Assembly: GCF_000367525.1 (NCBI RefSeq)
Contig: NZ_HF570956.1
Span: forward strand, 724,854-788,853
Direction of reading: 5' to 3'
DNA: 64,000 nucleotides
From: Phycicoccus elongatus Lp2
GTDB lineage: Bacteria > Actinomycetota > Actinomycetes > Actinomycetales > Dermatophilaceae
Below the pieces are notes generated by a model that was not told where the DNA came from, did not search any database, and was given only the letters and a program-made list of their open reading frames with translations. The position numbers and the translations under genes were made by a program. Shown here one piece after another: positions 11,771 to 31,804 of this stretch. Positions within the stretch are counted from its first letter, which is position 1, and each line of letters opens with the position of its first letter.

Positions 11771-11868
11771 GCGCAGAATGATCGGTCATCCGTGGCGGTC
11801 GGGGCGAGCCGTGTCGACGTCGTGAGACCTCAAGAACCCCCCAACCTCAGGCACGGGGGGAGCGGGTG

Positions 11869-12435: not shown

Positions 12436-12483
12436 TCAAGGGCACGCGTGGGGTCGCGCGGGGGGATCGCTGCCGACTTCCCT

Positions 12484-12600
12484 TGCGTCCGGCAAAAGGG
12501 TTGGTGTGTGCTCGCCGCGCCGGACGTTGCGCACGGCCTTCTCGTTGTGTCCGGCGTTGTGGTTGAAATGCCGTCCACTTGCCGGACGTTGCGAGTCGCC
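12484..12600. repeat. Pair of palindromic intergenic repeats (TCCGGC/GCCGGA type)
   Basis: The gap between the hemerythrin and rarD genes holds two neighbouring elements built on TGCGTCCGGC ... GCCGGACGTTGCG. One segment, 12569-12587 (TGCCGTCCACTTGCCGGAC), is the exact reverse complement of 47314-47332 upstream of the carboxylase gene. The arms can pair to form imperfect hairpins. This looks like a dispersed REP-like family, not a gene. Confidence 0.65.
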
Positions 12601-12601
12601 C

Positions 12602-13558: not shown

Positions 13559-13615
13559 CGGCCGAGCGTACGCCTGAGGTGCGGCACACGCGCGAGGCGT
13601 CCGCGCGGCATACGG

Positions 13616-13689
13616 ACCTGGGGTCACAAATGGGGCGGCAGGCGGCGGGAAGCGGCCGCATCCGACGTACCTGGTGTCACAAATGGGGC
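13616..13689. repeat. Two near-identical direct repeats upstream of rarD and at the korB end
   Basis: A 21-base block containing GTCACAAATGGGGC preceded by ACCTGG occurs at 13616-13636 and again at 13669-13689 with one mismatch (start-to-start 53 bases, about five helical turns). They lie in the gap between rarD (minus, start 13558) and the korB stop (13701), so they are positioned as upstream sites for rarD. Could be operator half-sites or a dispersed repeat. Confidence 0.55.
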
Positions 13690-13700
13690 AGGGCGCAGCG

Positions 13701-14795
13701 TCAGGCGACGGTCCAGGAGTCGTTCCCGCGCAGCAGCGCGTCGAGGTCGGCATCGCCCGCCGGTCCGCCCGCGACATCCTGGGCCCCGTCGACCTGGGCC
13801 CGCACGAGGTCGTCGTAGGACGGTCGCTCGACCTGCCGGAAGATCCCCATCGGCACGTGCGTCATGTCGGCCGTGTCCAGCCGCGAGAGGGCGAAGGCCT
13901 GGCTCGGGTCGGCGGCGCCCGGCTCATGGATGACGTATGCCGCGGGGTCGGCTTCCGCTTCCGGCACGAAGACGAGGCCGCCGTCCGTGCCCCGGACCAG
14001 GACCTTGCGCTCCTCCTCGGTGCCGACCGTCACCGGCTCACCGGCACGCAGCCGCACGAGACGGGCCTCCTGCTGGGTGCGGTCCTTGATCAGGTCGAAG
14101 GCGCCATCATTGAAGATCGGGCAGTTCTGGTAGATCTCGACGAGCGCGGTGCCGCGGTGCTGGGCCGCCGCCTTGAGGATGGTCGTCAGCTCGGCGCGGT
14201 CGGACTCCATGGCGCGCGCGACGAAGGTCGCCTCCGCACCCAGGGCCAGCGACACCGGGTTGAAGGGTTGGTCCACCGACCCCATCGGCGTCGACTTGGT
14301 GACCTGCCCGACCTTGGAGGTGGGGGAGTACTGGCCCTTGGTCAGCCCGTAGATCTGGTTGTTGAAGAGCAGGATCGTCAGGTTGACGTTGCGCCGCATG
14401 GCGTGGATGAGGTGGTTGCCGCCGATCGAGAGGGCGTCGCCGTCACCGGTGACGACCCACACGGACAGGTCGGGGCGGGCGGTGACCAGGCCGGTCGCGA
14501 TCGCCGGCGCGCGTCCGTGGATCGAGTGCATGCCATAGGTCTCGACGTAGTACGGGAACCGCGAGGAGCACCCGATGCCGGAGACGAAGACGACGTTCTC
14601 GCGCTTGAGCCCGAGCTCGGGCAGGAAGCCCTGGACGGTGGCGAGGATGACGTAGTCGCCGCAGCCCGGGCACCAGCGCACCTCCTGGTCGGAGGTGAAG
14701 TCCTTCTTGGTCTGCTTGGCGGCGTCGGCCGCCAGTGCCGGCACCCCGGCCAGGCCGTTGGCCAGCAGCTGGGGCATCCCGAGGTCGATGGTCAT
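13701..14795 (-). CDS. korB: 2-oxoacid:ferredoxin oxidoreductase, beta subunit
   Basis: 364 residues, thiamine-diphosphate-binding subunit. Visible: RWCPGCGDYVILATVQGF near the N-terminus, GIGCSSRFPYYVETYGMHSIHGRAPA, and the TPP/Mg motif GDGDALSIGGNH followed by LLFNNQIYGLTKGQYSPTS. With the alpha subunit it converts a 2-oxoacid (2-oxoglutarate is typical for the KorAB pair in actinobacteria) to the acyl-CoA and reduces ferredoxin. Its ATG overlaps the korA stop by 4 bases. Confidence 0.93.
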   Translation of the reverse strand: MTIDLGMPQLLANGLAGVPALAADAAKQTKKDFTSDQEVRWCPGCGDYVILATVQGFLPELGLKRENVVFVSGIGCSSRFPYYVETYGMHSIHGRAPAIATGLVTARPDLSVWVVTGDGDALSIGGNHLIHAMRRNVNLTILLFNNQIYGLTKGQYSPTSKVGQVTKSTPMGSVDQPFNPVSLALGAEATFVARAMESDRAELTTILKAAAQHRGTALVEIYQNCPIFNDGAFDLIKDRTQQEARLVRLRAGEPVTVGTEEERKVLVRGTDGGLVFVPEAEADPAAYVIHEPGAADPSQAFALSRLDTADMTHVPMGIFRQVERPSYDDLVRAQVDGAQDVAGGPAGDADLDALLRGNDSWTVA

Positions 14796-16654
14796 GCGAG
14801 CTCCTCGATCGCCGCGGTGATGACGTCGGCGAGTTCGGTTGTCGTGAAGGGGAGTCCGCGCACAGCGGTGTGCGACCGGACGTCCACGAGGTATTTCGCG
14901 CGCAGCAGCAGCGCGAGCTGGCCGAGGTTCATCTCCGGGACGATGACCCGGTCGTATGCCGCGAGCACCTCACCGAGGTTGGCCGGGAACGGGTTGAGGT
15001 GGCGCAGGTGGGTGCGGGCAACAGCGTGTCCGGCCTTGCGCGCGGCCCGGACGGCGGCCGCGATCGGGCCGTAGGTCGAGCCCCACCCGAGCATGAGCAC
15101 CCGCGCGGACCCCGACGGGTCGTCGACCTCGAGGTCGGGCACGGTCACTCCGTCGACCTTGGCCTGGCGCAGCCGCGTCATCCGGTCGTGGTTGTCGGGG
15201 TCGTAGGAGATGTTGCCGGTGACGTCGGCCTTCTCGATGCCGCCGATCCGGTGCTCCAGCCCCGCCGTGCCGGGGACCGCCCACGGACGGGCCAGCGTCT
15301 CGGCGTCGCGCTGGTAGGGGTGGAAAACCCGGTTCCCCTGTGCGTCAACCCCATTGGGCTCGGTGGCGAACTCCACCTCGAGCGCGGGCAGCGAGGAGAC
15401 CTCGGGCACCAGCCACGGCTCCGAGCCATTGGCGAGGTAGCCGTCGGAGAGCACGAAGACGGGCGTCCGATAAGTCGTCGCGATCCGCACCGCCTCCATC
15501 GCCGCGTCGAAGCAGTCGCTCGGGGTCTGCGGCGCGACGATCGGCACCGGCGACTCGCCGTTGCGCCCGAACATCGCCTGCAGCAGGTCGGCCTGCTCGG
15601 TCTTGGTGGGCAACCCGGTCGAGGGCCCGCCGCGCTGCACGTCGACGATGACGAGCGGCAGCTCCAAGGAGACTGCCAGCCCGATCGTCTCGGACTTGAG
15701 CGCGACACCGGGACCAGAAGTCGTCGTGACCCCAAGTGCCCCACCGAAACTCGCGCCCAGCGCCATGCCGATGCCGGCGATCTCGTCCTCGGCCTGCATC
15801 GTCGTCACGCCGTGGCGCTTGAGGGACGAGAGCGTGTGCAGGATGTCGGAGGCCGGGGTGATCGGATACGACCCGAGCACCAGCGGCAGGCCGGACCGGT
15901 GAGAGGCGGCGACCAGCCCGAGCGCCAGCGCGGCATTGCCGGTGATGTTGCGGTAGGTGCCCGCCGGCATCGGAGCCGGCCCCACGGCATACGCGGAAAC
16001 GAACTCCTCGGTGGTCTCGCCGTAGGCCACGCCGGCGGCGAGCGCCTTGAGGTTGGCGGCGAGGATCTCCGGCTTGGAGCCGAACTTCTTGGCGAGGAAG
16101 TTCTCGGTCGCGTCGGTGGGGCGGGAGTACATCCAGGAGAGCAGACCGAGCGCGAACATGTTCTTCGCGCGCTCCTTCTCCTTACGGGTGAGGTCGAAGT
16201 CGGCCAACGCCTCGACGGTCATCGACGTCAGCGGCAGGCCGTGGACGTGCCACGACTCCAGCGACCCGTCCTCGAGGGGGTTGGCGGCATACCCGACCTT
16301 GGCAAGGTTGCGGGTCCCGAACTCGTCGGTGTTGGCGATGATCGTCGCCCCCCGGGGCACGTCGGCGAGGTTGGCCTTGAGCGCGGCAGGGTTCATCGCG
16401 ACGAGCACGTCGGGGGCATCCCCGGGGGTGAGCACGTCGTGATCGGCGAAGTGCAGTTGGAAACTCGAGACGCCGGGGAGGGTGCCCTGGGGGGCGCGGA
16501 TCTCGGCCGGGAAGTTGGGCAGGGTCGACAGGTCGTTGCCCATCGCGGCGGTGTCGCTGGTGAAGCGGTCGCCGGTCAACTGCATGCCGTCGCCGGAGTC
16601 CCCGGCGAAACGGATGACGACTCGGTCGATCGACTCGACGGTCTTGCTGCTCAA
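14792..16654 (-). CDS. korA: 2-oxoacid:ferredoxin oxidoreductase, alpha subunit (gamma-alpha fusion)
   Basis: 620 residues. The N-terminal about 200 residues are the gamma-type domain (VVIRFAGDSGDGMQLTGDRF), then the pyrimidine-binding alpha domain begins near residue 220 with [34 protein letters not shown] and contains TTTSGPGVALKSETIGLAV. Typical actinobacterial KorA. Divergently transcribed from nuoA2, 123 bases away. Known KorAB enzymes supply reduced ferredoxin; here this faces an NADH-module-less complex I operon. Confidence 0.93.
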   Translation of the reverse strand: MSSKTVESIDRVVIRFAGDSGDGMQLTGDRFTSDTAAMGNDLSTLPNFPAEIRAPQGTLPGVSSFQLHFADHDVLTPGDAPDVLVAMNPAALKANLADVPRGATIIANTDEFGTRNLAKVGYAANPLEDGSLESWHVHGLPLTSMTVEALADFDLTRKEKERAKNMFALGLLSWMYSRPTDATENFLAKKFGSKPEILAANLKALAAGVAYGETTEEFVSAYAVGPAPMPAGTYRNITGNAALALGLVAASHRSGLPLVLGSYPITPASDILHTLSSLKRHGVTTMQAEDEIAGIGMALGASFGGALGVTTTSGPGVALKSETIGLAVSLELPLVIVDVQRGGPSTGLPTKTEQADLLQAMFGRNGESPVPIVAPQTPSDCFDAAMEAVRIATTYRTPVFVLSDGYLANGSEPWLVPEVSSLPALEVEFATEPNGVDAQGNRVFHPYQRDAETLARPWAVPGTAGLEHRIGGIEKADVTGNISYDPDNHDRMTRLRQAKVDGVTVPDLEVDDPSGSARVLMLGWGSTYGPIAAAVRAARKAGHAVARTHLRHLNPFPANLGEVLAAYDRVIVPEMNLGQLALLLRAKYLVDVRSHTAVRGLPFTTTELADVITAAIEELA

Positions 16655-16777
16655 CGGATCACCTGGACCTGCGGGGGGTGCTGCCCCCGGGGCCGGAGGC
16701 GTTCAATCCATCCTACGACCGCGCTTAGGCCACCCTTGGTAGGCGTTCCGAGGACTGACCATCGCTAGGCTTCGCCC
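16655..16777. promoter_or_regulatory. Divergent intergenic region korA / nuoA2
   Basis: 123-base gap between two outward-facing operons, so it must contain both promoters. It is more AT-rich near nuoA2 (TTGGTA about 16737 and CTAGGC about 16766 could be -35/-10-like). A G6/C5 hairpin lies in the korA leader around 16671-16690. No operator is recognisable. Confidence 0.4.
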
Positions 16778-17146
16778 ATGACCGGCACCTCGGGCTATGT
16801 CGTCGTCACGGCGGTGATCCTCGCGGGGATCCTCCTCGTGACCGCGGGCATGACCGCGCGTCGGCTGATCGCCCCCCGGGCCGCGACCCCGGCCAAGCTC
16901 ACCACCTACGAGTCCGGCGTCGACCCGGTCGGCGTGGGCTGGGCGCAGAGCCAGATCCGCTACGTCGGCTTCGCCTTTCTCTACGTCGTCTTCGCCGTCG
17001 ACGCCGTCTACCTCTTCCCGTGGGCGCTCGTCGTCCGCCATCCGAACCTTGGCCTGCGCTCCCTTGTCGAGATCGGCGTCTTCATCGCGATCCTTGTTGT
17101 CGGCCTGGTCCACGCCGCTCGCCGCGGCCTGCTGCGCTGGGACTGA
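16778..17146 (+). CDS. nuoA: NADH-quinone oxidoreductase subunit A, second complex
   Basis: 122 residues, three hydrophobic segments. NuoA landmarks: TTYESGVDPVGVGWAQSQIRYVGFAFLYVVFAVDAVYLFPWA, with the YESG loop and conserved Asp/Glu of helix 2, and a LVEIGVFIAILVVGLVHA third helix. First gene of the second nuo operon. It is separated from its normal partner nuoB by a Pls-like gene and a peptidase gene. Confidence 0.93.
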   Translation: MTGTSGYVVVTAVILAGILLVTAGMTARRLIAPRAATPAKLTTYESGVDPVGVGWAQSQIRYVGFAFLYVVFAVDAVYLFPWALVVRHPNLGLRSLVEIGVFIAILVVGLVHAARRGLLRWD

Positions 17147-17175
17147 GCCCCGCGGCATACCGGCTGGGCACGGGG

Positions 17176-17216
17176 GTCGCCACCACACGGGTCGGGGCCG
17201 GACGTGTGGTGGCCAC
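17176..17216. terminator. Hairpin downstream of nuoA2
   Basis: Inverted repeat of 14 bases (GTCGCCACCACACG / CGTGTGGTGGCCAC, one mismatch) with a 13-base loop, 30 bases after the nuoA2 stop. It could stop or attenuate transcription before the Pls-like gene, or stabilise the nuoA2 message end. Confidence 0.55.
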
Positions 17217-17261
17217 ACCTGCCACGACCGCGTGTCGGACGCGCGGCCTGGGCGACCTCCC

Positions 17262-17321
17262 GACGACGTTCTCGAGGTGCCGGAGCGGGTCGCGCAGGAG
17301 ATCGCCACGCACTTCGGCTGA
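17262..17321 (+). pseudogene. Possible C-terminal gene remnant
   Basis: In the gap before the Pls-like gene one frame ends PPDDVLEVPERVAQEIATHFG then stop (17319-17321). The helix-like, charge-balanced tail looks like a true protein C-terminus, unlike the random frames upstream of it. No start or N-terminal part is visible, and I cannot name a family. Could be chance. Confidence 0.25.
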
Positions 17322-17386
17322 GGTGGGCGAGCCGGTCGGTGCCGGGACGACACCTGCCGTTCACCCATCTGCGGGAGAATGCCCGC

Positions 17387-20300
17387 GTGCCGATCTCCCC
17401 GTTGCTCCTGCGCGCCGATGAGGCCCCCGAGCCGCGCACACTCGTCGACATCTTTCGGGCGACCGTTGCCGCCCATCCGGACACTCTGGCGCTCGACAAC
17501 GGCCGCGAGACCCTCACGTATGCCGCGCTCGCCGACGCCGCCGATGACATCGCGGATGCCCTCGTCGCCGTCGGGGTCGAGCGTGGCGATCGGGTCGGCG
17601 TGCGGATCCCCAGCGGCACGACCGATCTCTACATCGCAATTCTCGGCATCCTGGCCGCCGGTTGCGCCTATGTGCCGGTCGACCACGACGACCCTGACGA
17701 GCGGGCCAGGGTCGTCTTCGGGGAGGCCGGCGTCGCCGCGGTCGTGACGGCGGACCTCGTCGTGCGGGCCACCGCCGGCACCATCCCGGATTCCGGAGTG
17801 CGGGAGGACCCCGACCTGACCGACGACGCCTGGATCATCTTCACCTCCGGCTCGACCGGCACGCCCAAGGGCGTGGCCGTCACGCACCGCAACGCCGCAG
17901 CCTTCGTCGACGCCGAGTCGCTGATGTTCCTCCAAGCGGCGCCGATCCGACCCGGCGACCGGGTCATGGCCGGCCTCTCGGTCGCCTTCGACGCCAGTTG
18001 CGAGGAGATGTGGCTCGCCTGGCGCTACGGCGCCTGCCTCGTGCCCGCCCCCCGCTCACTGGTGCGCTCCGGTGTCGACCTCGGTCCGTGGCTCATCGCC
18101 AACGGCATCACCATCGTGTCGACCGTGCCGACCCTCGTGCAGCTCTGGCCGCCCGATGCCCTCACCCGCGTGCGCCTGCTCATCCTCGGCGGCGAGGCCT
18201 GCCCGCCTGAGATCGGTGCCCGCCTGGCGACCCCCGAGCGCGAGGTCTGGAACACCTACGGACCCACGGAGGCCACCGTGGTCGCCTGCGGCGCCATGCT
18301 CACCGGCGAGCCGCCGGTGCGGATCGGCCTGCCCCTGGCCGGCTGGGACCTGGCCGTCGTGGACGAGTCCGGGGAGCCGGTGCCCGATGGTGAGGAAGGC
18401 GAGTTGATCATCGGAGGTGTCGGCCTCGCCCGCTACCTGGACCCCGACAAGGACGCCGTGGCGTATGCCGCGATGCCCACCCTGGGCTGGGACCGCGCCT
18501 ATCGCTCGGGAGACCGGGTGCGCTTCGACGGGGTCGGGATCGTCTTCGCGGGCCGACGCGACGAGCAGGTCAAGGTCGGTGGCCGACGGATCGAGCTCGG
18601 CGAACTCGACTCCGCCCTCCTCGGCCTGCCCGGGGTCACCGGTGGGGGAGCCGCGGTCCGCCGCAGCGCCGCCGGCAACCCGCTGCTCATCGGTTATGTC
18701 ACGGTCGACCCGAGCAGCTTCGATGCCAAGGCATCGGTCGAGTTGCTCCGCCGCGACCTGCCCGCGCCACTGGTCCCCAAACTGGCCGTCGTCGACGACA
18801 TCCCCGTGCGGACGAGCGGCAAGATCGACCGCGACGCCCTGCCCTGGCCGCTGCCGAGCGGTGCCCTGGGGGCGGGCGCAGGCGGTGTCGCCGCGGCCTA
18901 CGAAGGGACGGCGGGGTTCATCGCCGAACATTGGGAGGTGGTGCTGGGCACCGCGCCGACCTCGAGCGACGAGGACTTCTTCGACGTCGGCGGCGACAGC
19001 CTGGCCGCCGCCGAGATCATCTCGCGGCTGCGCGCGCGGTTCCCCGAAGTGACCGTCGCCGACATCTACGAGACGCCGACCCTGGCCACGCTCGCCCCGG
19101 TGCTCGATGCCATGTCCACCCCGCAGGGTCGCCTCAACCGCGATGTCGGCATCGTGCCCCGCAAGACCCAGCTCGCCCAGGTGGCCGCCACGATCGTCAA
19201 CCGCTCGGTCGGTGCGCTGCGCTGGCTGGTGTGGATCGGGCTGGGCAACGCTCTCGCCCACGAGGTGATCGGTCTCCAGTGGCTGCCCCGGGCTCCGTGG
19301 TGGCTGCTCACCCTCGGGGTGCTCCTCCTGCTCACTCCACCCGGGCGGATGGCGCTGGCGGCGCTCAGCGCCCGCCTTCTCCTGCGCGGTGTCGAGCCCG
19401 GCGCGCACCCGCGCGGCGGCAAGGTCCACCTCAAGGTCTGGCTCGCCGAGCGGATCGCCGACGAGCTCGGCGCGACGAATCTCTCCGGCGCCGGCCTGAT
19501 CAAGGCCTACGCCCGCGGACTCGGGGCGCGGATCGGCGCGGACGTGGACCTGCACTCGCTCCCGCCTGTGACCGGCATGCTCGATCTCGGGCCCGGCGCC
19601 TCGATCGAGCCGGAAGTCGACCTGCGTGGCCACTGGATCGACGGTGCCCACTTCATCCTCGGCCCGATCCGGGTGCGCGCCGGGGCCCGCGTCGGATCGC
19701 GCTCGACGCTCCTGCCGGGGGCCGACGTCGGCAAGCGTGCCGAGATCGCCCCCGGTTCAGCGGTTTTCGGCAATGTTCCTGCCGACGAGGCTTGGTCGGG
19801 AGCGCCGGCCGCCGCAAGTGGGACGGCCCGCGGGCCGTGGGCGGACGAGGCGCCACCGAGCCGTCCCGCCTGGGTGATCGGGTATGCCGTGACCGCCCTC
19901 GCGCTCGCCGGTCTCCCCCTTGTCGCGGCGCTCGCGGGCATCGCCTCCGTTGCGGGGCCGCTCGCCGACGCGCCATCCCTGGGTGTTCTCCTCGGCCGCG
20001 CCCTGCTCTGGCTGCCCGTCGCGGCGACAGTGGGTTTCCTCGTGCTCGCGGCCCTCGTGTTCCTCATCGTCCGACTCCTCGGACTCGGGCTGACCGAGGG
20101 CGCGCACCCCGTGCACTCGCGTCAGGCGTGGCAGGCCTGGACGACGTTGCGGGTCCTCGACGAGGCCCGCACGTGGCTCTTCCCGATCTACTCCTCGACG
20201 GTGACCCCGGTGTGGCTGCGTGCGCTGGGCGCGCGGATCGGCCCGGACGTCGAGGCCTCCACGGTGCTCCTCATCCCGCGGTTCACCGATGTCCGCGAGG

Positions 20301-21292
20301 GCGCCTTCCTGGCCGATGACACCCTCGTCGCGTCCTACGAGCTGGGCGGTGGGTGGCTGCGCGTCGCCGATGCCCGGGTCGGTCGGGGTGCCTTCGTCGG
20401 CAATTCGGGCATGGCCTCTCCGGGTCGCAAGGTGCCCAAGCAGGGCCTGGTCGCCGTGCTGTCCGCCGCTCCCAAGCGCACCAAGGCCAAGGCCGGCACG
20501 AGCTGGTTGGGATCGCCCCCGCAGCGTTTGCGTCGTGAGTCCGCGGACACCGACGCCACGCGCACGACCGCGCCCCCGGTGCGGCTGCGTGTGGCGCGCG
20601 CCCTCGTCGAGCTGGCGCGGGCAGTGCCGGTCTGGCTGCACCTGGCCCTCGTCGTCCTCGCCGCCGCGACCCTCGAGTGGCTCTGGCTGCGATCCGGCTG
20701 GCTTGCTGTGCTCCTCGGCGGGGTCGTGCTGGTGGCGGTCGGCGGGGTCGGGGCAGCCGTGGCGACGGTGGCCAAGTGGACCCTCATCGGCAAGGTGCGC
20801 CCGGGTAACCATCCGCTGTGGAGTTCCTTCATCTGGCGCAACGAGCTCGCCGACACCTTCACCGAGGTCATCGCCGCTCCGTGGTTCGCGCGATCCCTCA
20901 CGGGCACGCATGTCCTCAATGCGTGGTTCCGCACCCTCGGAGCCAAGGTCGGGCACGGCGTCTGGTGCGACACCTACTGGCTGCCCGAGCCCGACCTCAT
21001 CGACCTGCGGGACGGCGCCACCGTCAACGCCGGGTGCGTCGTGCAGACCCACCTCTTCCATGACCGCGTCCTGTCGATGGACACCGTGACGATCGCCGAG
21101 GGTGGCACCCTCGGACCGAACTCGGTCGTCCTGCCGGCAGCCCGGATCGGTCGGTCGGCCACCGTCGGCCCGGTCTCACTCGTCATGCGCGGCGAGTCCG
21201 TGCCCGATCGCACCCGCTGGATGGGAAACCCGGTCGGACCGTGGCTCGACGAGCCGGCCCCGCGGCATACCCTCGACCCTGATGCGGACTGA
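17387..21292 (+). CDS. Pls/PosA-type single-module NRPS (poly-amino-acid synthetase-like)
   Basis: 1,301 residues from GTG 17387. Order: adenylation domain (about 1-500; A3 FTSGSTGTPKG, A4 FDASCEEMW, A5 NTYGPTEATV, A10 SGKIDRDAL), carrier protein with Ser538 in GGDSLAAAE, then no condensation or thioesterase domain but a large membrane region with about six hydrophobic segments alternating with hexapeptide-like (left-handed beta-helix) acyltransferase segments. This is the architecture of epsilon-poly-lysine synthetase Pls and relatives. The A4 Asp binds the substrate alpha-amino group; Asp-Ala-Glu at the 235/236/239 code positions resembles codes for basic amino acids. Likely product (inference): an isopeptide-linked amino acid homopolymer or a short conjugate. 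It sits inside the second nuo operon, and its end overlaps the next gene by 11 bases. Confidence 0.85.
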   Translation: MPISPLLLRADEAPEPRTLVDIFRATVAAHPDTLALDNGRETLTYAALADAADDIADALVAVGVERGDRVGVRIPSGTTDLYIAILGILAAGCAYVPVDHDDPDERARVVFGEAGVAAVVTADLVVRATAGTIPDSGVREDPDLTDDAWIIFTSGSTGTPKGVAVTHRNAAAFVDAESLMFLQAAPIRPGDRVMAGLSVAFDASCEEMWLAWRYGACLVPAPRSLVRSGVDLGPWLIANGITIVSTVPTLVQLWPPDALTRVRLLILGGEACPPEIGARLATPEREVWNTYGPTEATVVACGAMLTGEPPVRIGLPLAGWDLAVVDESGEPVPDGEEGELIIGGVGLARYLDPDKDAVAYAAMPTLGWDRAYRSGDRVRFDGVGIVFAGRRDEQVKVGGRRIELGELDSALLGLPGVTGGGAAVRRSAAGNPLLIGYVTVDPSSFDAKASVELLRRDLPAPLVPKLAVVDDIPVRTSGKIDRDALPWPLPSGALGAGAGGVAAAYEGTAGFIAEHWEVVLGTAPTSSDEDFFDVGGDSLAAAEIISRLRARFPEVTVADIYETPTLATLAPVLDAMSTPQGRLNRDVGIVPRKTQLAQVAATIVNRSVGALRWLVWIGLGNALAHEVIGLQWLPRAPWWLLTLGVLLLLTPPGRMALAALSARLLLRGVEPGAHPRGGKVHLKVWLAERIADELGATNLSGAGLIKAYARGLGARIGADVDLHSLPPVTGMLDLGPGASIEPEVDLRGHWIDGAHFILGPIRVRAGARVGSRSTLLPGADVGKRAEIAPGSAVFGNVPADEAWSGAPAAASGTARGPWADEAPPSRPAWVIGYAVTALALAGLPLVAALAGIASVAGPLADAPSLGVLLGRALLWLPVAATVGFLVLAALVFLIVRLLGLGLTEGAHPVHSRQAWQAWTTLRVLDEARTWLFPIYSSTVTPVWLRALGARIGPDVEASTVLLIPRFTDVREGAFLADDTLVASYELGGGWLRVADARVGRGAFVGNSGMASPGRKVPKQGLVAVLSAAPKRTKAKAGTSWLGSPPQRLRRESADTDATRTTAPPVRLRVARALVELARAVPVWLHLALVVLAAATLEWLWLRSGWLAVLLGGVVLVAVGGVGAAVATVAKWTLIGKVRPGNHPLWSSFIWRNELADTFTEVIAAPWFARSLTGTHVLNAWFRTLGAKVGHGVWCDTYWLPEPDLIDLRDGATVNAGCVVQTHLFHDRVLSMDTVTIAEGGTLGPNSVVLPAARIGRSATVGPVSLVMRGESVPDRTRWMGNPVGPWLDEPAPRHTLDPDAD

Positions 21293-22595: not shown

Positions 22596-22788
22596 CCCCC
22601 TCCCGCCGGGTTCGGGGCGGATGCTCAGCATCATGATGCCTGCATCCCTGAGGCGAGCCTTCGGCCGATTCCCCGGGATCCGGTGGGTCAACCCCCTGGC
22701 CTGACCGGCGTGGACGGGGTCGCCGACCCGGGTCGACCACGGAGGTGGGCTCGGGAGTTCCGCGCCGGGCGACACCGGGCCGACTAGG

Positions 22789-23412
22789 GTGACCAGCGTG
22801 AGCTTGCCGGTCCCCCTGCCGATGCCCACGGTCGGCCCCTTGGGTGCTCACGCACCCAAGCCGATGCGTGTCGTGCTCAACTGGGGCCGTCGCTACTCCC
22901 TCTGGGTCTTCAACTTCGGCCTGGCCTGCTGCGCCATCGAGTTCATCGCGGCCTCGATGGGGCGCCACGACTTCATGCGTTTGGGTGTCATCCCCTTCGC
23001 GCCGGGGCCTCGTCAGGCCGACCTGATGGTCGTGTCCGGCACCGTCACCGACAAGATGGCCCCGGCGATCCGGCGGCTGTATGACCAGATGCCGGAGCCG
23101 AAGTACGTCATCTCCTTCGGCGCCTGCTCGAATTCGGGTGGCCCCTACTGGGATTCCTACTCGGTGACCAAGGGGGTCGACCAGATCATCCCGGTCGATG
23201 TGTATGTTCCCGGCTGCCCACCGCGCCCCGAGGCGCTCCTCCAGGGCATCGTCAAGCTCCAGGAGAAGATCGCCGGCGAGAAGGTCACCGGCTCACTCGT
23301 CGCCGATCGCCAGCCGGGGCGCACCCCGGGTGTCGGGTATGCCGCGCACCGCACCGTGAGCGCGGCGGAGGTCGGGCGACCACTCCTCTCTCGGCCGGAG
23401 GAGGGCTCGTGA
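22789..23412 (+). CDS. nuoB: NADH-quinone oxidoreductase subunit B, second complex
   Basis: 207 residues from GTG 22789 (GTG 22798 is equally possible). All four ligands of cluster N2 are present: adjacent Cys47-Cys48 ([10 protein letters not shown]), Cys113 (FGACSNSGG) and Cys143 ([10 protein letters not shown]). The protein is extended by about 45 residues after the conserved part. NuoB normally contacts NuoD at the quinone site; nuoD is absent from this operon. Overlaps the next gene by 4 bases. Confidence 0.94.
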
Positions 23413-23846
23413 CCGAGGATCGACGTTCCTCCGGGCGCCCCGCGCCGGTCATGCTCAGCGGCTCTGCGCTGGCCCTCGGGCTGGTCGCGCTCGTGGCCGA
23501 GATCGTGCTCTTCGCGGCCATTGGGCAACTGGCGCACCACCACGCCGGCGGTGGCGTCACCGGCATTGTCGTCGCCGTTGTCGTGCTGGCGCTCGCGGCC
23601 GTGCTCTGGGGAGTCTTCATGGCCCCGAACAGCCCCCGGCGGATCAGCCTCCGGCCGCGGGTGGGCGTCTGTGGCGTGCTGGGACTGGTGCTCGGTGGCC
23701 TCCTGGTCGCGGCTGGCTGGACCGTGTGGGGTGTCGTCGTCGGTGTGTGCGGCCTCGGCCTGGCGGCTGTCCAGTGGGTGATGGGTCGCGCGCAGGAGCG
23801 GGCCGAAGCGGCCCGGACCGACTGCTTCCCCGGTGACCCGTCATGA
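23409..23846 (+). CDS. Small membrane protein, DUF2568/YrdB-like
   Basis: 145 residues with four hydrophobic segments; the centre reads [18 protein letters not shown], the signature stretch of the DUF2568 (YrdB) family. Function unknown. It overlaps nuoB by 4 bases and nuoC by 4 bases, so it is translated with them and takes exactly the place between B and C; this tight coupling suggests a part in the complex or a hitchhiker that has kept the operon intact. Confidence 0.6.
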
Positions 23847-24379
23847 TTGCGGTCCCCGACGAGCTGGAGACCGTTGACGTCGGCGAGTGGCACGCGCGCG
23901 TCGAACGAGCCCACTGCGACGGGTTCGCGATGTTCGACTGGCTGACCGCGGTGGACCGGATGGATTCCGGCACACCGGGATTCGACGTCGTGGTCCGGCT
24001 GATCGCCCTCCCGGAGGTCAACAGCGCGACCGGGCTCCGCGGCATACGACTGACGGCGCGGGTGGCCGACGGTCAGTCGCTCGCCAGCATCACCGACCTC
24101 TACGCCGGGGCGGCCTGGCACGAGCGCGAGACCTTCGAGATGTTCGGTGTCTTCTTCGACGGCTTCGCCGACCACACGGACCTCGGTCTGCGACCCCTGC
24201 TGCTGCCGGACGGCTTCGAGGGCACCCCGCTGCGCAAGTCCTTCCAGTTGGCCGCGCGCGCATCCAAGACGTGGCCCGGCGGCAAGGAACCGGGTGAGGG
24301 CCACGACACCGCCAAGTCACCCTCGCGCCGACGGGTGCAGGCCCCGGGCGTCCCGCCGCCCGAGTGGGGCCCGAGATGA
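23843..24379 (+). CDS. nuoC: NADH-quinone oxidoreductase subunit C, second complex
   Basis: 178 residues. The NuoC (30-kDa subunit) signature is clear: ITDLYAGAAWHERETFEMFGVFFDGFADHTDLGLRPLLLPD followed by GTPLRKSF. After that comes a Pro/Arg/Lys-rich tail of about 45 residues. There is no NuoD domain fused to it and no separate nuoD follows: the ATG of nuoH2 overlaps its stop by 4 bases. Confidence 0.93.
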   Translation: MIAVPDELETVDVGEWHARVERAHCDGFAMFDWLTAVDRMDSGTPGFDVVVRLIALPEVNSATGLRGIRLTARVADGQSLASITDLYAGAAWHERETFEMFGVFFDGFADHTDLGLRPLLLPDGFEGTPLRKSFQLAARASKTWPGGKEPGEGHDTAKSPSRRRVQAPGVPPPEWGPR

Positions 24380-25332
24380 CGCTGGTGGAGGTTGCCCTGC
24401 GGGCGGTGAGCGTGCTTGCCGCCTTCCTCGTGCTGCCCCTGCTCGTCGGTCAGACCGAGCACAAACTCATGGCGCACATGCAGGGCCGCCTCGGGCCGAT
24501 GTATGCCGGGGGCTTCCACGGCTGGGCCCAACTGGTCGCCGACGGGGCCAAGTTCGTGCAGAAGGAGGACATCGTCCCCGCGGCCGCGGACAAGCGGCTC
24601 TTCCGGCTCGCCCCGGCGATCGCGCTCATCCCCTACCTGGTGGCGCTGGCCGTCGTGCCGATCGCGCCGGGTGTGGCCGGCCTCGACGTACCCGCGAGCG
24701 CGATCCTCGTGCTCGTCGCGACCGGGGTGGGCGCGCTCGGCACGCTCATTGCCGGGTGGGCGAGCGCCAACAAGTACGCCCTGATCGGGGCCCTGCGGGC
24801 GGCCGCGCAACTCATCTCCTACGAGCTGCCGATCGTGCTCGCCGTCGCGTCCGTCTGCCTGGCTGGCGGCTCCCTGTCGCTGCCCACGATCACCGAGCGG
24901 TGGCAGCCGCACTGGCTGCTCTGGCAGTTGCCCGGTGCGATCGTCTTTCTCGTCGCCGCGGTCGCCGAGCTCCAGCGCCCCCCCTTCGACACCCCGGTCG
25001 CCGATGCCGAACTCGTCATGGGGCCGTGGACGGAGTACACCGGGCTCCGCTTCGCCTTCTTCCTGCTCGCCGAGTATGCCGGGATCGTCGTGCTGTCCCT
25101 CCTCTTCGCCGCGCTGTGGCTGGGTGGGTGGCACGGACCCTTCAGTGAGCACCTCGGCTGGGTGTGGACCCTGCTCAAGGGCTTCGCCGTCGCGATCCTC
25201 GTCATCTGGATGCGGGTCGCCTGGCCGCGGGTCCGCGCCGACCAACTGCAGCGCCTGGCCTGGCTCTGGCTGGTGCCCCTGGCGCTGCTCCAACTCGCCC
25301 TCACCGGCGTCGGGGTGGTGATGGGCTGGTGA
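24376..25332 (+). CDS. nuoH: NADH-quinone oxidoreductase subunit H, second complex
   Basis: 318 residues from ATG 24376 (ATGA overlap with nuoC2). Eight hydrophobic helices; [26 protein letters not shown] corresponds to the N-terminal quinone-site loop and [33 protein letters not shown] to the acidic loop. Shorter than NuoH of the first operon (462) because it lacks the C-terminal tail. The acidic loop is VADAE where operon 1 has AEGEGE, a notable divergence in a charged region thought to couple redox to pumping. Confidence 0.94.
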
Positions 25333-25868
25333 GCGCGCCCAAGGACAAGCGCGGGCGCGACGGCATACTCCCCGGGCTGCTCAAGGGGATGGCGACGACC
25401 GCCAAGTCGGTCATGCGACCCACCCACACCGCGGAGTACCCGCACGCCGAGCCGACCCTCCCGCCCCGTAGTCGCGGCGTCATCGCTCTGCTCGAGGAGA
25501 ACTGCACGAGTTGCATGCTCTGTGCGCGCGAGTGCCCCGACTGGTGCATCTACATCGACTCGCACAAGGAGACGATCCCGGCGACCACCGAGGGTGGCCG
25601 GGACCGGCAGCGCAACGTCCTCGACCGCTTCGCCATCGACTTCAGCCTGTGCATGTACTGCGGGATCTGCGTCGAGGTGTGCCCCTTCGACGCCCTCTTC
25701 TGGAGCCCACAGTTCGAATACGCCGAATACGACCTGCGCGACCTGCTCCACGAGAAGGACCGGTTGGGGGAGTGGATGGCGACGGTGCCTCCGCCACCGG
25801 CCCTCAATGAGTCCGCGGCCGACCCGGCCGAGGTGACCGCCGCCAACCGCCCGGAGCGGGGCCGATGA
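25329..25868 (+). CDS. nuoI: NADH-quinone oxidoreductase subunit I, second complex
   Basis: 179 residues from GTG 25329, overlapping the nuoH2 stop. Two full 4Fe-4S ligand sets: Cys59/62/65/69 ([12 protein letters not shown]) and Cys108/111/114/118 ([12 protein letters not shown]). With no NuoEFG in the operon, this 8Fe subunit is the outermost redox subunit encoded here and could accept electrons from a ferredoxin (inference). Overlaps nuoJ2. Confidence 0.94.
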
Positions 25869-26392
25869 CCTCGCTCGACCTTGCGTTCGGCGCCACCGGC
25901 CTGCTCGCGCTCGTCGGTGGGCTGCTCGCCGTCACCACTCGCCACGTCGTCCATGCCGCCCTCTGGCTCGTCGTCGCGCTGCTCGGCGTCGCGGGGTCAC
26001 TGCTCGTCCTGGGGTCCGAACTGGTGTCGCTCGTGCTCGTGCTCGTCTATGTCGGCGCGATCGTCGTGCTCGTCCTCTTCGCCCTCATGGTCACCCGCGC
26101 CCCGATCGGGCCGGACACCGCCCACACCGTCGGTTGGCCGCGCCGGATCGGTGGCGCCCTCAGTGGCGCCGCCGTCGCGGTGCTCCTCGGGGCGGTCCTC
26201 GTCCCCCTCGTGGGGGGCGCATCGGGTGGGGCCATCAAACGGGCCGCGGTCGACTCGACGACGGTGGCACAGGACCTCTTCGGCGTGTGGGTCTGGCCCT
26301 TCGAGATCCTCTCGCTGCTCCTGCTCGCCGCGCTCGTCGCGGCACTCGCCGTCTCCCGGATTCGACGGGACGAGACGGAGGTGCCCTCGTGA
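25865..26392 (+). CDS. nuoJ: NADH-quinone oxidoreductase subunit J, second complex
   Basis: 175 residues, five helices, with [19 protein letters not shown] as the NuoJ signature helix. It lacks the long hydrophilic C-terminal tail of the first operon's NuoJ. ATGA/GTGA overlaps on both sides. Confidence 0.92.
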
Positions 26393-26691
26393 TCCACCTC
26401 GTCGGCCCGGTCGTCCTGGCGGTCGCGCTCATCGGTCTGGGCATCATGGGCGTGCTCACCCGACGCCATCCCGTCATGGTCCTGATCGCGATCGAACTCA
26501 TCCTCGCCGGAGGGCTGGTCCTGCTCGTCACCAGCGGATTGGTCGGGGGGAGCCGCTGGTCCGGGGCCTCGGTGCTCCCCCTCTTCGTCATCACGATCGC
26601 GGCGGCCGAGACCGTCGTCGCCCTCGCGATCGTCCTCACCCTCTTCCGGCATCGCCGACGCATCGACCTCGATGACGGGAGCGAGCCGTGA
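26389..26691 (+). CDS. nuoK: NADH-quinone oxidoreductase subunit K, second complex
   Basis: 100 residues from GTG 26389. Three helices with the two expected intramembrane glutamates: IAIELILAGGL and AAAETVVALAI. Overlaps nuoJ2 and nuoL2 by 4 bases. Confidence 0.93.
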   Translation: MIHLVGPVVLAVALIGLGIMGVLTRRHPVMVLIAIELILAGGLVLLVTSGLVGGSRWSGASVLPLFVITIAAAETVVALAIVLTLFRHRRRIDLDDGSEP

Positions 26692-28640
26692 GCGCCCTAC
26701 TGCTCATCGTGGTGAGCGCCGTCATCGGCGTGGTCGTCCTGCTCACGCGGCGCTGGGCCGTCGTTGTGCGCGCGCTTGCGCCGGCCGGCAGCGGCTTCCT
26801 CGCGCTCCTCGCCGGGGGCGCGATGCTGCGCACCCAAGCGCCCGAGACGATCTCGTGGCTTCCGTCGATCGACCTCGGGGGCCTGTTCCTGCCGCTGGAC
26901 CTGGGGACGTCGAGGCCCCTCGCCGCGATCTCCTTTGTCGTCGCCCTGGTCTCGGCGGCCGTCCAGATCTACAGCACCTGGTACCTGCGCGACGACGAGC
27001 GCTACCCCGTCTTCGCCGCCACCGTTGCCCTCTTCACTGCGGCGATGTTCCTCGTCGTTCACTCCCGTGATCTCGCGCTCACCCTCGTCGGCTGGGAGGT
27101 CATGGGCTGGTGCTCCTACCTGCTCATCGGGCACTGGTCGCGCAAGGAGTCGGCCCGGCGCGCGGCCCACAAGGCCTTCCTCGTCACACGGCTCGCGGAC
27201 GTCGGTTTCGTCCTGGGTGTGGTGGGCCTCGCCACGAGCGTCGGCTCCACCGGGTATGCCGTGGTGCTCCGCTTGTGGGCGGAGCCGACGGTCTGCGATG
27301 CCTACGGCTGTGTCGGCCCGAATCCGGTGCTGCGCAACACCTTTCTCGTCCTCATCATCGTCGGAGTGCTCGGCAAGTCGGCCCAGGTGCCCTTCCAGGA
27401 CTGGTTGCCCGACGCGATGGAGGGCCCGACGCCGGCGTCGGCGCTCATCCACGCCGCGACGATGGTCGCCGCCGGCACCGTCGTGCTTGCCGGGCTCTAC
27501 CCGGCCCTCGCCCAGGCCGAGGTCGCCCGCTGGGTGCTCGGCATCGCGACCTCGGTGACCATGGTGCTTGCGGCCCTGCTCGCCATGGGGCAGAGCGACC
27601 TCAAACGGCTGCTCGCGTGGTCGACGGTCAGCCAGGTCGCCATCATGCTGTCCGCGCTGGCTGCTGCTCCGGTGATCCTCGAGCAGCAGCCCGGTGAGCC
27701 CCCCGCTGTCGGCGTCCCACCCGGGCCGGCCCTGGCCATCGTGCCGGGCGCCGCGCTCTTCCACCTGTGGTCCCATGCCCTCTTCAAGTCGCTGCTCTTC
27801 CTGGCCATCGGCCTGCTCGGCGTCATTGCCGGCGGCACCACCGCCGCCCTGCTGCGCGGAGCGGGGATGCGGACCCGACTGGGGCGCTCAGCCTTCCTCA
27901 TCGGCCTGCTGTCGCTCGCCGGCGTGCCGCTCGTCGTCGGCGGCTTCTCCAAGGAGTCCGTCATCGACACCGCCTACCAGGGCGCCAGCCAGGGCGGCCC
28001 CGGCCTGCTCGTGCTGCTGGCCCTGCTGGTGACCGTCGTGCTCACGGCGTCCTACAGCACCCGCGCGTACCTCGTCATCGCCGAACTCATCGACGTCACC
28101 GCACCAGTCGAGGCCGTGGGCGAGATGTCCGAGTCGCGGCGGCAGCGGCGATCGGAGAGCCTCGACCCCGACGGACGCGGCGCGGCCAACGCAGTGCTCG
28201 TCACCCTCGCCGTCCTCACCCTCATCGGCGGCCTGGCGCTCGCGCTCGACCTCTTCGACCTGCACGGCCTGTCCTGGGTCTGGACCCTGATCACCGTTCT
28301 GCTCATCGGCGTCGGTGCCGGATTGGCCTTCGCGCTCGGGCGCGCTGGTGACCCGGGCGTGCGTTTCGCCGGTCGGCGAGTGGCCCTCTTCGATGGCGGC
28401 TTCGGCGCCGACACGGCATACCGGGCTCTCGCGAAGCCCGTGGTGCACCTCGCGCGGATCGTCGCCTTCGTCGACACCGAGGTCATCGACGGTTACGTGC
28501 GGGGCGCGGCCGTCACCGCCCGGCTCGGTGGGGCGGTGACCGAGCGGGCGCACCGGGCAGAGCGGCTGCGCACCGGTGGGTGGCTCGTGGTGCTGGGGCT
28601 CGTGGCGGTGCTGGCCGTGGGGGTGTTCGCGTGGCGCTGA
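26688..28640 (+). CDS. nuoL: NADH-quinone oxidoreductase subunit L, second complex
   Basis: 650 residues. Landmarks LTLVGWEVMGWCSYLLIGHW (membrane Glu), [31 protein letters not shown] (Lys and discontinuous helix) and LWSHALFKSLLFL; a long lateral helix region precedes the final membrane segment. Pumping residues look intact, so the membrane arm of the second complex appears functional. Confidence 0.94.
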   Translation: MSALLLIVVSAVIGVVVLLTRRWAVVVRALAPAGSGFLALLAGGAMLRTQAPETISWLPSIDLGGLFLPLDLGTSRPLAAISFVVALVSAAVQIYSTWYLRDDERYPVFAATVALFTAAMFLVVHSRDLALTLVGWEVMGWCSYLLIGHWSRKESARRAAHKAFLVTRLADVGFVLGVVGLATSVGSTGYAVVLRLWAEPTVCDAYGCVGPNPVLRNTFLVLIIVGVLGKSAQVPFQDWLPDAMEGPTPASALIHAATMVAAGTVVLAGLYPALAQAEVARWVLGIATSVTMVLAALLAMGQSDLKRLLAWSTVSQVAIMLSALAAAPVILEQQPGEPPAVGVPPGPALAIVPGAALFHLWSHALFKSLLFLAIGLLGVIAGGTTAALLRGAGMRTRLGRSAFLIGLLSLAGVPLVVGGFSKESVIDTAYQGASQGGPGLLVLLALLVTVVLTASYSTRAYLVIAELIDVTAPVEAVGEMSESRRQRRSESLDPDGRGAANAVLVTLAVLTLIGGLALALDLFDLHGLSWVWTLITVLLIGVGAGLAFALGRAGDPGVRFAGRRVALFDGGFGADTAYRALAKPVVHLARIVAFVDTEVIDGYVRGAAVTARLGGAVTERAHRAERLRTGGWLVVLGLVAVLAVGVFAWR

Positions 28641-30196
28641 CCTTCATGCTCCTGATCCCACTCCTCGTGGGAGTCGGCCTCATCGGAGCCGGCCGCATCG
28701 TGCCGACCCCGGTCGCGCACAACGTCGCCGGCATCGCCGCGCTCATCACCTTCGGCCTGGCGATCGGCGTCGCCATCGAGCGCCCGTCCGTTGACCGGGC
28801 CTGGCTCCCCGAGCTCGGCGTCCGCAGCAGTTTCGCGGTCGACGGCATCTCGATCCCGCTCGTGCTGCTCACGGCACTGATCGGGGTGCTCGTCGTCGCG
28901 CATGCCCGTGGCGAGGTGCCCGACGGCGGCTCTGCGGCAACCTTCCTGGGTTGTCTGCTGCTCGTGGTCGGTGGTGCGCTCACGACCTTCACCGCGCGGG
29001 ACGCGATCCTCTTCTTCCTGGCGTTCGAGCTCGTGCTCATCCCGATGTGGGTGCTCATCACCCGGTTCGGCGATCCCCATCGGCCGCCTGCGCGGGCCGA
29101 GGCCGGGTGGCGCTTCGTCCTCTACACCGCCGTCGGCTCGACCCTCATGCTGGTCGGAATCCTGCTGCTCGTCGCCTCGGCGCACTCCAGCGACCTTGGC
29201 CGACTGCTCGAGGTCGCGCCGTCCCTGCCGCGCGGACGTCAACTCACGATCGCGCTGCTCCTCACGGTCGGGCTCGCCGTCAAGGTGCCCCTCTTCCCAC
29301 TGCACACCTGGCTGCCGTCTGCGCACACGATCGCCCCCACCGCCGGCTCGGTGCTGCTGGCCGCCGTGCTGCTCAAGATGGGCACCTATGGCCTCGTCCG
29401 CTTCCCGGTCGCGCTCGTGCCCGAAGGCTTCGGGATCATCGCGCCGGCCGTTGCCATCGCCGCCGTCATCTCGATCCTCTGGGGTGGACTGATCTGCCTC
29501 GTCGAGCGTGACCTCAAGCGCCTGATCGCCTACTCGTCGGTGGCGCACATGGGCTTCGTGGTCCTCGGACTGGCCACCGGCAGCGAGGTCGGTCTCCAGG
29601 CTGCGCTCTACGGCAACCTCGCCCACGGCGTCATCTCGGCCCTGCTCTTCGTCGTCGTCGGCGGCCTCAAGCGGCGCTGGGGGAGCGTCGACCTGGGCCG
29701 GGCCTGGCCGGCCCTTCGTGAGGTCGCCCCGCACCGTGGCTTCCTGCTCATCCTCGGTCTCGCAGCTGCCCTTGGGCTGCCCGGACTGGCCGGGTTCTGG
29801 GGCGAGTTCCTGGTCATCATGTCGGCCTGGGCGCCGCGCCGACCCGGCCTCGAGGATCTCTTCCACGTGTGCGCCGTCCTGGCGGCGATCGGCGGACTGT
29901 TGGCCGCGGCATACTCCCTGCGCGTCGCGCGACTGATCTGGGTCGGCGACGAGCCTGACACCCCCGCCCCCGGACAGTCGAGTGAGGAGAACACGCCGCT
30001 CGCACCTGACTCGACACCGCATGTTCTCCTCACTCGACCGTCCGGCGATGCGGCTGTCGACGTCGAGACGCGCGGGGTCGAGCGGGTCGTCCTCCTCGTG
30101 CTCGCGCTGGGCGTGATCGGTCTGGGCCTGCTGCCGTGGCTCGCCATCGACATCGCGCGACCCGCGGTTCAGCTCGTCCTGGGAGGTGCACCGTGA
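28631..30196 (+). CDS. nuoM: NADH-quinone oxidoreductase subunit M, second complex
   Basis: 521 residues from GTG 28631, overlapping the nuoL2 stop. Landmarks FFLAFELVLIPMWVLITRFG, KVPLFPLHTWLPSAHTIAPTAGSV and YSSVAHMGFVVLG. Between two late helices the hydrophilic linker is enlarged by an in-frame 72-base palindromic insert (29972-30043, see repeat entry) that is translated as 24 residues beginning GQSSEENTPLAPDS. Otherwise complete. Confidence 0.92.
   Translation: MALTFMLLIPLLVGVGLIGAGRIVPTPVAHNVAGIAALITFGLAIGVAIERPSVDRAWLPELGVRSSFAVDGISIPLVLLTALIGVLVVAHARGEVPDGGSAATFLGCLLLVVGGALTTFTARDAILFFLAFELVLIPMWVLITRFGDPHRPPARAEAGWRFVLYTAVGSTLMLVGILLLVASAHSSDLGRLLEVAPSLPRGRQLTIALLLTVGLAVKVPLFPLHTWLPSAHTIAPTAGSVLLAAVLLKMGTYGLVRFPVALVPEGFGIIAPAVAIAAVISILWGGLICLVERDLKRLIAYSSVAHMGFVVLGLATGSEVGLQAALYGNLAHGVISALLFVVVGGLKRRWGSVDLGRAWPALREVAPHRGFLLILGLAAALGLPGLAGFWGEFLVIMSAWAPRRPGLEDLFHVCAVLAAIGGLLAAAYSLRVARLIWVGDEPDTPAPGQSSEENTPLAPDSTPHVLLTRPSGDAAVDVETRGVERVVLLVLALGVIGLGLLPWLAIDIARPAVQLVLGGAP
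29972..30043. repeat. 72-base inverted repeat inserted in frame in nuoM2
   Basis: Arms of 22 bases at 29972-29993 and 30022-30043 pair with a single mismatch (shared core GTCGAGTGAGGAGAACA), enclosing a 28-base spacer. Total length 72 = 24 codons, so the frame is kept. It falls in a cytoplasm- or periplasm-exposed loop where insertion is tolerable. Such a long palindrome is not expected in coding sequence. Confidence 0.75.
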
Positions 30197-31749: not shown

Positions 31750-31804
31750 GTCTGTTGTCCCGGACCGGGGAACGCCCCTGCTCCGTCCCGACGTTGGAGG
31801 AGAC

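What the first reader, a model, noticed from the sequence alone, without database searches (positions are those of the whole stretch)
17387..21292. Pls-like poly-amino-acid synthetase gene inside a nuo operon
An A-PCP-membrane-hexapeptide NRPS of the epsilon-poly-lysine synthetase family lies between nuoA2 and nuoB2 on the same strand. A natural-product gene in the middle of a respiratory operon is unexpected. Asp-Ala-Glu at the first specificity positions resembles codes for basic amino acids. Membrane energisation and export/polymerisation at the membrane could be physically or regulatorily linked, or the cassette was inserted.
Basis: partly seen in the sequence, partly recalled or inferred. 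Interest (0 to 1): 0.7.

Follow-up and report, generated by a model that had tools for sequence, protein, structure and literature searches.

The report
Polylysine synthetase operon inside nuo genes
The window carries an ordinary pair of genes for making and breaking down the antimicrobial polymer epsilon-poly-lysine; the only unusual thing is that, in this genus and in some Knoellia relatives, the pair sits between genes of a respiratory complex.

Summary
ORF 17387-21292 (+) encodes a 1301-aa Pls/PosA-family synthetase (TIGR02353, 677 bits) between nuoA and nuoB. Its ten substrate-pocket residues equal those of the solved epsilon-poly-L-lysine synthetase 7WEW, so the predicted substrate is L-lysine. 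This pair is standard (79 of the 80 named loci kept). It is a new member of a known system; the genome holds a second pls elsewhere.

What is odd is the address. Of 90 pls-bearing family genomes, 8 have pls within about 10 kb of nuoB: 3 of 3 of the window's genus, 4 of 4 pls-bearing Knoellia, and a Tetrasphaera MAG (between nuoB and nuoC). In all four Knoellia the pls start overlaps the nuoA stop by 4 nt; in the window the gap is 240 nt. Five pls-free Knoellia have nuoA and nuoB adjacent. So the pair entered long ago and may be co-transcribed. Relatives carry unrelated genes in the same intervals, suggesting a locus that tolerates insertions. Functional coupling to respiration is possible but unproven.

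The parts
17387..21292 (+). pls: Pls/PosA-family epsilon-poly-lysine synthetase, 1301 aa
   Evidence: TIGR02353 677 bits; 50% identical (651/1304) to a Streptomyces protein annotated epsilon-poly-L-lysine synthase Pls
17387..18856 (+). adenylation domain; pocket DAESIGTVVK (residues 202, 203, 206, 245, 266, 268, 290, 298, 299, 479)
   Evidence: best solved relative 7WEW, 603.7 bits; pocket columns
18920..19096 (+). carrier (PCP) domain with DVGGDSL
   Evidence: PF00550; motif
19175..21235 (+). C-terminal membrane / left-handed beta-helix polymerisation domain, three repeats
   Evidence: TIGR02353 residues 597-1283; AlphaFold model pLDDT 80.7, pTM 0.83, three repeats of helices plus short strands; Foldseek top hits hexapeptide acyltransferases, low TM-scores
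21282..22595 (+). pldII-like M1 metallopeptidase, ATG start overlaps the pls stop by 11 nt
   Evidence: PF01433 and PF17900; HELAH(X18)E zinc motif; overlap; 43% identical to the M1 gene next to an annotated Streptomyces pls
16778..17146 (+). nuoA
   Evidence: NCBIfam NuoA hits, below the curated cut-offs
17147..17386 (+). 240-nt spacer between nuoA and pls
   Evidence: only a 34-nt match in one fetched locus besides itself
22789..23412 (+). nuoB
   Evidence: PRK06411 225.7 bits against a cut-off of 116
23409..23846 (+). DUF2568 protein between nuoB and nuoC
   Evidence: PF10823
23843..24379 (+). nuoC
   Evidence: TIGR01961 76.6 bits, below the cut-off of 122.45
24364..31749 (+). nuoH, I, J, K, L, M, N (ORF starts not refined; nuoI, L, M and N named from order and general Pfam domains)
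   Evidence: Pfam hits
13701..16654 (-). korB, korA (2-oxoacid:ferredoxin oxidoreductase type), divergent from nuoA
   Evidence: PF01855, PF01558, PF17147; PF02775; gene names recalled

Best explanation
This is a pls-pldII operon. The synthetase activates L-lysine as the adenylate, loads it on its carrier domain, and its membrane-embedded C-terminal domain joins the units through the epsilon amino group into epsilon-poly-L-lysine. The M1 peptidase, translated with it, cuts the polymer, probably as self-protection. An ancestor shared with (or a donor to or from) Knoellia acquired the pair between nuoA and nuoB, and it has since been kept there under purifying selection, possibly read on the nuo transcript. 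Shown by computation: domain content, lysine pocket, intact zinc motif, gene overlaps, position, purifying selection. Inferred: activity, product, co-transcription. Any co-expression with the complex I genes would be a consequence of the position rather than a demonstrated function.
For: TIGR02353 677 bits. Top solved relative is epsilon-poly-L-lysine synthase 7WEW at 603.7 bits; the ornithine enzyme PosA (8G95) scores 193.9 with the same query. Pocket DAESIGTVVK in 98 of 98 Pls aligned (two genomes are in it twice) and in 7WEW (read off the alignment). M1 gene within 1500 nt downstream in 79 of 80 named loci (the best 80 of 589 confirmed) and in an annotated Streptomyces pls locus with a 4-nt overlap. 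HExxHx18E in 97 of 97 loci with an M1 hit. C-terminal fold as described for PosA. dN/dS 0.18-0.27 for pls against G001, G002 and K. subterranea. pls within about 10 kb of nuoB in 8 genomes; nuoA/pls 4-nt overlap in 4 of 4 Knoellia. Papers on pls-pldII: PMC8117764 (Results section) and PMC9223678 (passages).
Against: No product or expression data. In the window the nuoA-pls gap is 240 nt and the peptidase-nuoB gap 193 nt, so co-transcription is less certain here than in Knoellia. A native pls can be silent: no polymer was detected from C. variabile cultures (PMC8117764). In G001 a Fic-containing insert separates pls from the peptidase, and no nuoA was found in the 19-kb stretch; in G117 and G115 other ORFs separate the peptidase from nuoB. 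The nuo-gene tree does not place the window's genus with Knoellia, so single vertical descent of the insertion is not clean.
Confidence: 0.88

Rival explanations
1. pls-pldII is a working member of the nuo2 operon: making the polymer is tied by transcription to the respiratory state, because Pls needs plenty of ATP and acts at the membrane.
For: 4-nt nuoA/pls overlap in 4 of 4 pls-bearing Knoellia; same position kept in two genera at similar synonymous distance (window against K. subterranea: 0.78 for pls; 0.76, 1.04 and 0.65 for nuoB, nuoC and nuoH). Papers: high ATP is essential for optimal Pls activity (PMC9205021, passages); most listed nuo genes and other oxidative phosphorylation genes are up in a high producer (PMC10157215, passages).
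Against: Only 8 of 90 pls-bearing family genomes are linked and 2 of 80 named loci. Five pls-free Knoellia have nuoA-nuoB adjacent. Unrelated genes sit in the same intervals in other genomes. nuoA ends in ACGTGA in 4 of 5 pls-free Knoellia as well, so the overlapping GTG was already available. In the high producer of PMC10157215 nuoB was down and intracellular ATP was lower. Both papers concern Streptomyces.
Confidence: 0.2
2. The insertion is neutral: the nuo2 locus of this clade tolerates passengers, and pls happened to land there once and was inherited or transferred.
For: Inserted genes differ among genomes: glyoxalase and xanthine/uracil permease in G014, ABC/FtsX genes in G091, GDSL lipase in three Knoellia examined, a LuxR-type AAA protein in G117. 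Pls relatives occur in 18 records of the plasmid collection, a weak sign of mobility: no single place covers 80% of the query and one record is 11.9 Mb long.
Against: The tight overlap in Knoellia, and retention next to the nuo genes in 7 of 7 pls-bearing genomes of the two genera.
Confidence: 0.6
3. The enzyme uses another diamino acid (ornithine, Dab, Dap, beta-lysine).
For: Pockets of this enzyme family share D at position 1 and E at position 3 whatever the diamino acid (PMC10522769, Discussion).
Against: Position 2 is Ala, the lysine type; PosA has Met and Dap/Dab enzymes Phe (PMC10522769), and the beta-lysine enzyme reads DGESISVVNK. The pocket equals 7WEW at all ten positions. The peptidase neighbour goes with pls and not with the Dab or Dap enzymes (PMC8117764).
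Confidence: 0.04
4. The gene is decaying or silent.
For: The second copy's peptidase gene matches in two frames; a native pls elsewhere was silent in culture (PMC8117764).
Against: The window copy is full length with its motifs and low dN/dS.
Confidence: 0.08

Closest known systems
Streptomyces albulus Pls / PldII (epsilon-poly-L-lysine synthetase and degrading enzyme; A domain solved as 7WEW)
   Same: A-PCP-membrane architecture (per papers), identical ten pocket residues, M1-type peptidase gene directly downstream and coupled (PMC9223678, passages)
   Different: Only the A domain of this enzyme was compared here; a full-length annotated Streptomyces Pls is 50% identical. The window pair lies between nuoA and nuoB
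Corynebacterium variabile Pls (PMC8117764)
   Same: Operon with a peptidase gene, per the paper; polymer shown after expression in S. coelicolor
   Different: No nuo context mentioned in the Results section read; sequence not compared here
PosA, delta-poly-L-ornithine synthetase of Acinetobacter baumannii (8G95-8G98)
   Same: Family and predicted C-terminal architecture
   Different: Pocket position 2 Met instead of Ala; much lower A-domain score (193.9 against 603.7 bits)
Knoellia subterranea pls locus (L029/L132)
   Same: nuoA-pls-M1-nuoB order, 73% identical Pls
   Different: pls start overlaps the nuoA stop by 4 nt instead of a 240-nt gap

Membership tests
epsilon-poly-L-lysine synthetase (Pls) | A-PCP followed by the TIGR02353 terminal domain; no condensation or thioesterase domain found | tested here: met
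epsilon-poly-L-lysine synthetase (Pls) | lysine-type pocket, identical to a confirmed Pls | tested here: met
   DAESIGTVVK; same in the 7WEW alignment
epsilon-poly-L-lysine synthetase (Pls) | three helix pairs, each followed by a left-handed beta-helix | tested here: met
   model m609e2424b2e2: three repeats of helices then short strands; Foldseek hexapeptide hits, low TM-scores. A simple hydropathy scan found the second and third pairs but not the first
epsilon-poly-L-lysine synthetase (Pls) | pldII-type M1 peptidase in operon | tested here: met
   11-nt overlap, zinc motif, 43% identity to the Streptomyces neighbour; PldII of S. albulus itself was not compared
epsilon-poly-L-lysine synthetase (Pls) | makes epsilon-linked L-lysine polymer | not testable with these tools
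   needs enzyme assay or mass spectrometry
delta-poly-L-ornithine synthetase (PosA) | Met at pocket position 2 | tested here: not met
   Ala at residue 203
nuo operon member | conserved place in nuo operons across relatives | tested here: not met
   8 of 90 pls-bearing family genomes linked; 2 of 80 named loci
nuo operon member | same strand with short or overlapping spacing | tested here: inconclusive
   4-nt overlap in 4 of 4 Knoellia, 41 nt in G002, 240 nt in the window

The most novel reading that the evidence does not exclude
In Knoellia and the window's genus, a cationic-polymer synthetase has become a co-translated member of a second, probably ferredoxin-linked, complex I operon, so that polylysine is made only when this respiratory complex is being built and ATP can be afforded: a hard-wired energy gate on antimicrobial production.
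Probability: 0.17. Interest if true: 0.5.

Novelty: new member of a known kind. Interest (0 to 1): 0.27.

Why it matters
It adds a likely epsilon-poly-lysine producer lineage (relatives of Knoellia and Tetrasphaera) and shows that the second nuo locus of this family takes up accessory genes. If co-expression with nuo is real, it would give a testable genetic handle on the reported ATP dependence of polylysine synthesis. As a gene system it is already understood.

Tried and rejected
Rejected: a new kind of natural-product system (domains, pocket, fold and partner gene all match Pls). Rejected: an insertion unique to this genome (pls is beside nuoB in G001, G002 and four Knoellia as well). Rejected: a recent arrival (synonymous distances to K. 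subterranea are alike for pls and nuo genes). Not settled: one vertical insertion versus transfer between the genera. The Pls tree joins the window's genus and Knoellia (SH-aLRT 96-97), the nuo/kor tree does not (5 of its 27 rows have under half of the columns), and the AU test does not reject a species-like Pls tree (p 0.086 and 0.078).

Led nowhere: promoter and terminator scan of 16600-23000 (0 and 0 found), Rfam on 16500-23500 (0), tRNA in 10000-30000 as an integration site (0), origin of the spacers. Literature: the search with polylysine synthetase, Knoellia, Tetrasphaera and nuo terms found 34 papers; in the 15 listed 'polylysine synthetase' occurs 0 times. Of 42 papers on poly-lysine, respiratory and operon terms, 12 were listed, one of them on this polymer by count, with no mention of NADH dehydrogenase. 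Only listings of an open-access library were seen, so absence from print is not shown.
Full report
Observation. The 17387-21292 frame is open and encodes 1301 aa. [quoted passage not shown] nuoA lies upstream and nuoB downstream on the same strand. The genome has two loci above the TIGR02353 cut-off: this one and one on the other strand at C1:2401713-2403734, the latter 69% identical to ours. The family is common: 24 of 58 relatives are over the cut-off, and 87 of 297 genomes drawn from the order have a match to the window protein at E <= 1e-200.

Substrate. The best solved relative is the epsilon-poly-L-lysine synthase A domain, 7WEW, at 603.7 bits; the ornithine enzyme PosA (8G95) reaches 193.9. 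I located the ten pocket positions by motif (the mapping of motif to pocket position is recalled from the gramicidin synthetase convention). They read DAESIGTVVK in the window and in all 98 Pls aligned, and the same ten residues can be read in 7WEW from the alignment printed. The 98 include two genomes present twice (L029/L132 and L030/L133). PMC10522769 (outline with abstract; sections 4, 8, 10, 11, 13, 14) gives Ala at position 2 as the lysine type, Met for ornithine, Phe for Dap/Dab.

C-terminal domain. The AlphaFold model of residues 590-1301, from 20 family sequences, has mean pLDDT 80.7 and pTM 0.83 and shows three repeats of helices followed by runs of short strands; residues 416-472 and 693-712 of the model are below pLDDT 50. 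Foldseek finds hexapeptide acyltransferases first, at E about 2e-4 and with low TM-scores; 17 matches reach E <= 0.001. This is the architecture PMC10522769 describes for PosA. A crude hydropathy scan found the second and third membrane pairs but missed the first.

Partner gene. ORF 21282-22595 is an M1 metallopeptidase whose ATG overlaps the pls stop by 11 nt, with HELAH(X18)E intact. Such a gene follows pls within 1500 nt in 79 of 80 named loci; L067 is the exception. In an annotated Streptomyces plasmid the gene named epsilon-poly-L-lysine synthase Pls is 50% identical to ours and is followed, with a 4-nt overlap, by an M1 gene 43% identical to ours. [quoted passage not shown] PMC9223678 (passages) calls pldII translationally coupled to pls. 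The primary paper (PMC2935060) is not held.

Place in the genome. Of 186 family genomes searched, 90 have a TIGR02353 match at E <= 1e-100. I compared positions by hand with the nuoB search: 18 of the 90 show no nuoB hit at E <= 1e-75. Of the other 72, 8 have pls on the same strand within about 10 kb of nuoB: G000, G001, G002 (the window's genus), G115, G117, G119, G120, and G091. Many of the rest are drafts with the two genes on different contigs, which could hide more. G120 has a contig of the same length, 355,889, as Knoellia subterranea, so genus g18 is taken as Knoellia; G091 likewise matches the uncultured Tetrasphaera MAG. The order nuoA-pls-peptidase-nuoB is seen in the window, G002 and the four Knoellia. 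In G117 a LuxR-type AAA protein ORF, and in G115 about 1 kb with an opposite-strand ORF, lie between the peptidase and nuoB. In G001 the nuoB side is kept, but an H+-pyrophosphatase gene lies upstream and no nuoA was found in the 19-kb stretch, and a Fic-family gene with a small ORF lies between pls and the peptidase. In G091 pls lies between nuoB and nuoC. In the named set, 2 of 80 loci have nuo genes near pls, and these are the same Knoellia and Tetrasphaera.

Spacing. In 4 of 4 pls-bearing Knoellia the pls GTG overlaps the nuoA TGA by 4 nt; the gap is 41 nt in G002 and 240 nt in the window. Against this, nuoA ends in ACGTGA in 4 of 5 pls-free Knoellia too, so the overlap may reflect where the gene landed. 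Among 23 loci with nuoA and nuoB but no pls between them, the two are adjacent in 21 (-26 to 107 nt); the exceptions are L115 (2510 nt) and L133 (2125 nt).

Passengers. The nuoA-nuoB and nuoB-nuoC intervals carry other genes in relatives: glyoxalase and xanthine/uracil permease between nuoA and nuoB, and a pyridine nucleotide oxidoreductase between nuoB and nuoC, in G014; an ABC ATPase before nuoB and ABC/FtsX genes after it in G091; GDSL lipase between nuoB and nuoC in three Knoellia examined (G019, G113, G120); the LuxR-type AAA protein in G117; in G115 an opposite-strand ORF with a DUF3558 match below its cut-off.

History. In a 30-row Pls tree the seven nuoB-side genes of the two genera form one clade (SH-aLRT 96; 97 in a 22-row tree), with G000 copy 2 plus G091 as sister. 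The nuo/kor tree groups the window's genus with G091 and G014 instead (G014, G001 and three more rows are under half filled). The AU test does not reject a species-like Pls tree (p 0.086 and 0.078). Synonymous distance window-K. subterranea is 0.78 for pls and 0.76, 1.04 and 0.65 for nuoB, nuoC and nuoH; pls dN/dS is about 0.22 (G002), 0.18 (G001), 0.27 (K. subterranea) and 0.31 (copy 2). So the arrangement is old and the gene is kept, but one insertion versus later transfer is open. Pls relatives are also found in 18 of 72,556 records of the plasmid collection at E <= 1e-100, all of actinobacterial genera by name; no single place covers 80% of the query and one record is chromosome-sized.

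Reading. The gene pair is the known epsilon-poly-lysine system. The address is a lineage trait. A link to energy supply is reasonable: a review states that Pls needs high ATP (PMC9205021, passages), and a high producer raised most oxidative phosphorylation genes (PMC10157215, passages). But in that strain nuoB was down and ATP was lower, and both papers concern Streptomyces. I rate a passenger in a permissive locus as more likely than a functional unit.

Noticed in passing
window 16778-31749: The second nuo cluster has A, B, C, H-N and a divergent korAB but no nuoD; the genome's only 49-kDa-subunit matches are at C1:833504 and C1:2714786-2715544. E, F and G were not seen among the ORFs annotated but were not searched genome-wide.
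   Followed up: partly
L111 (G000:C1:2396000-2412000): A second pls copy with the same pocket; its peptidase gene matches in two overlapping frames, as if frameshifted.
   Followed up: partly
L109 13513-15882 (-): In G001 an H+-pyrophosphatase gene lies directly upstream of pls; adenylation releases pyrophosphate, so the pairing is suggestive or a rearrangement accident.
   Followed up: no
L109 8449-9267 (-): A Fic-family gene and a small upstream ORF without a Pfam match, perhaps a toxin-antitoxin pair, between pls and its peptidase in G001.
   Followed up: no
L115, L130, L132, L133, L136: nuoA-nuoB and nuoB-nuoC intervals of this family carry varied unrelated genes.
   Followed up: partly
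window 31562-32698 (+): An M48 peptidase ORF overlaps the end of the nuoN ORF on the same strand (start not refined).
   Followed up: no
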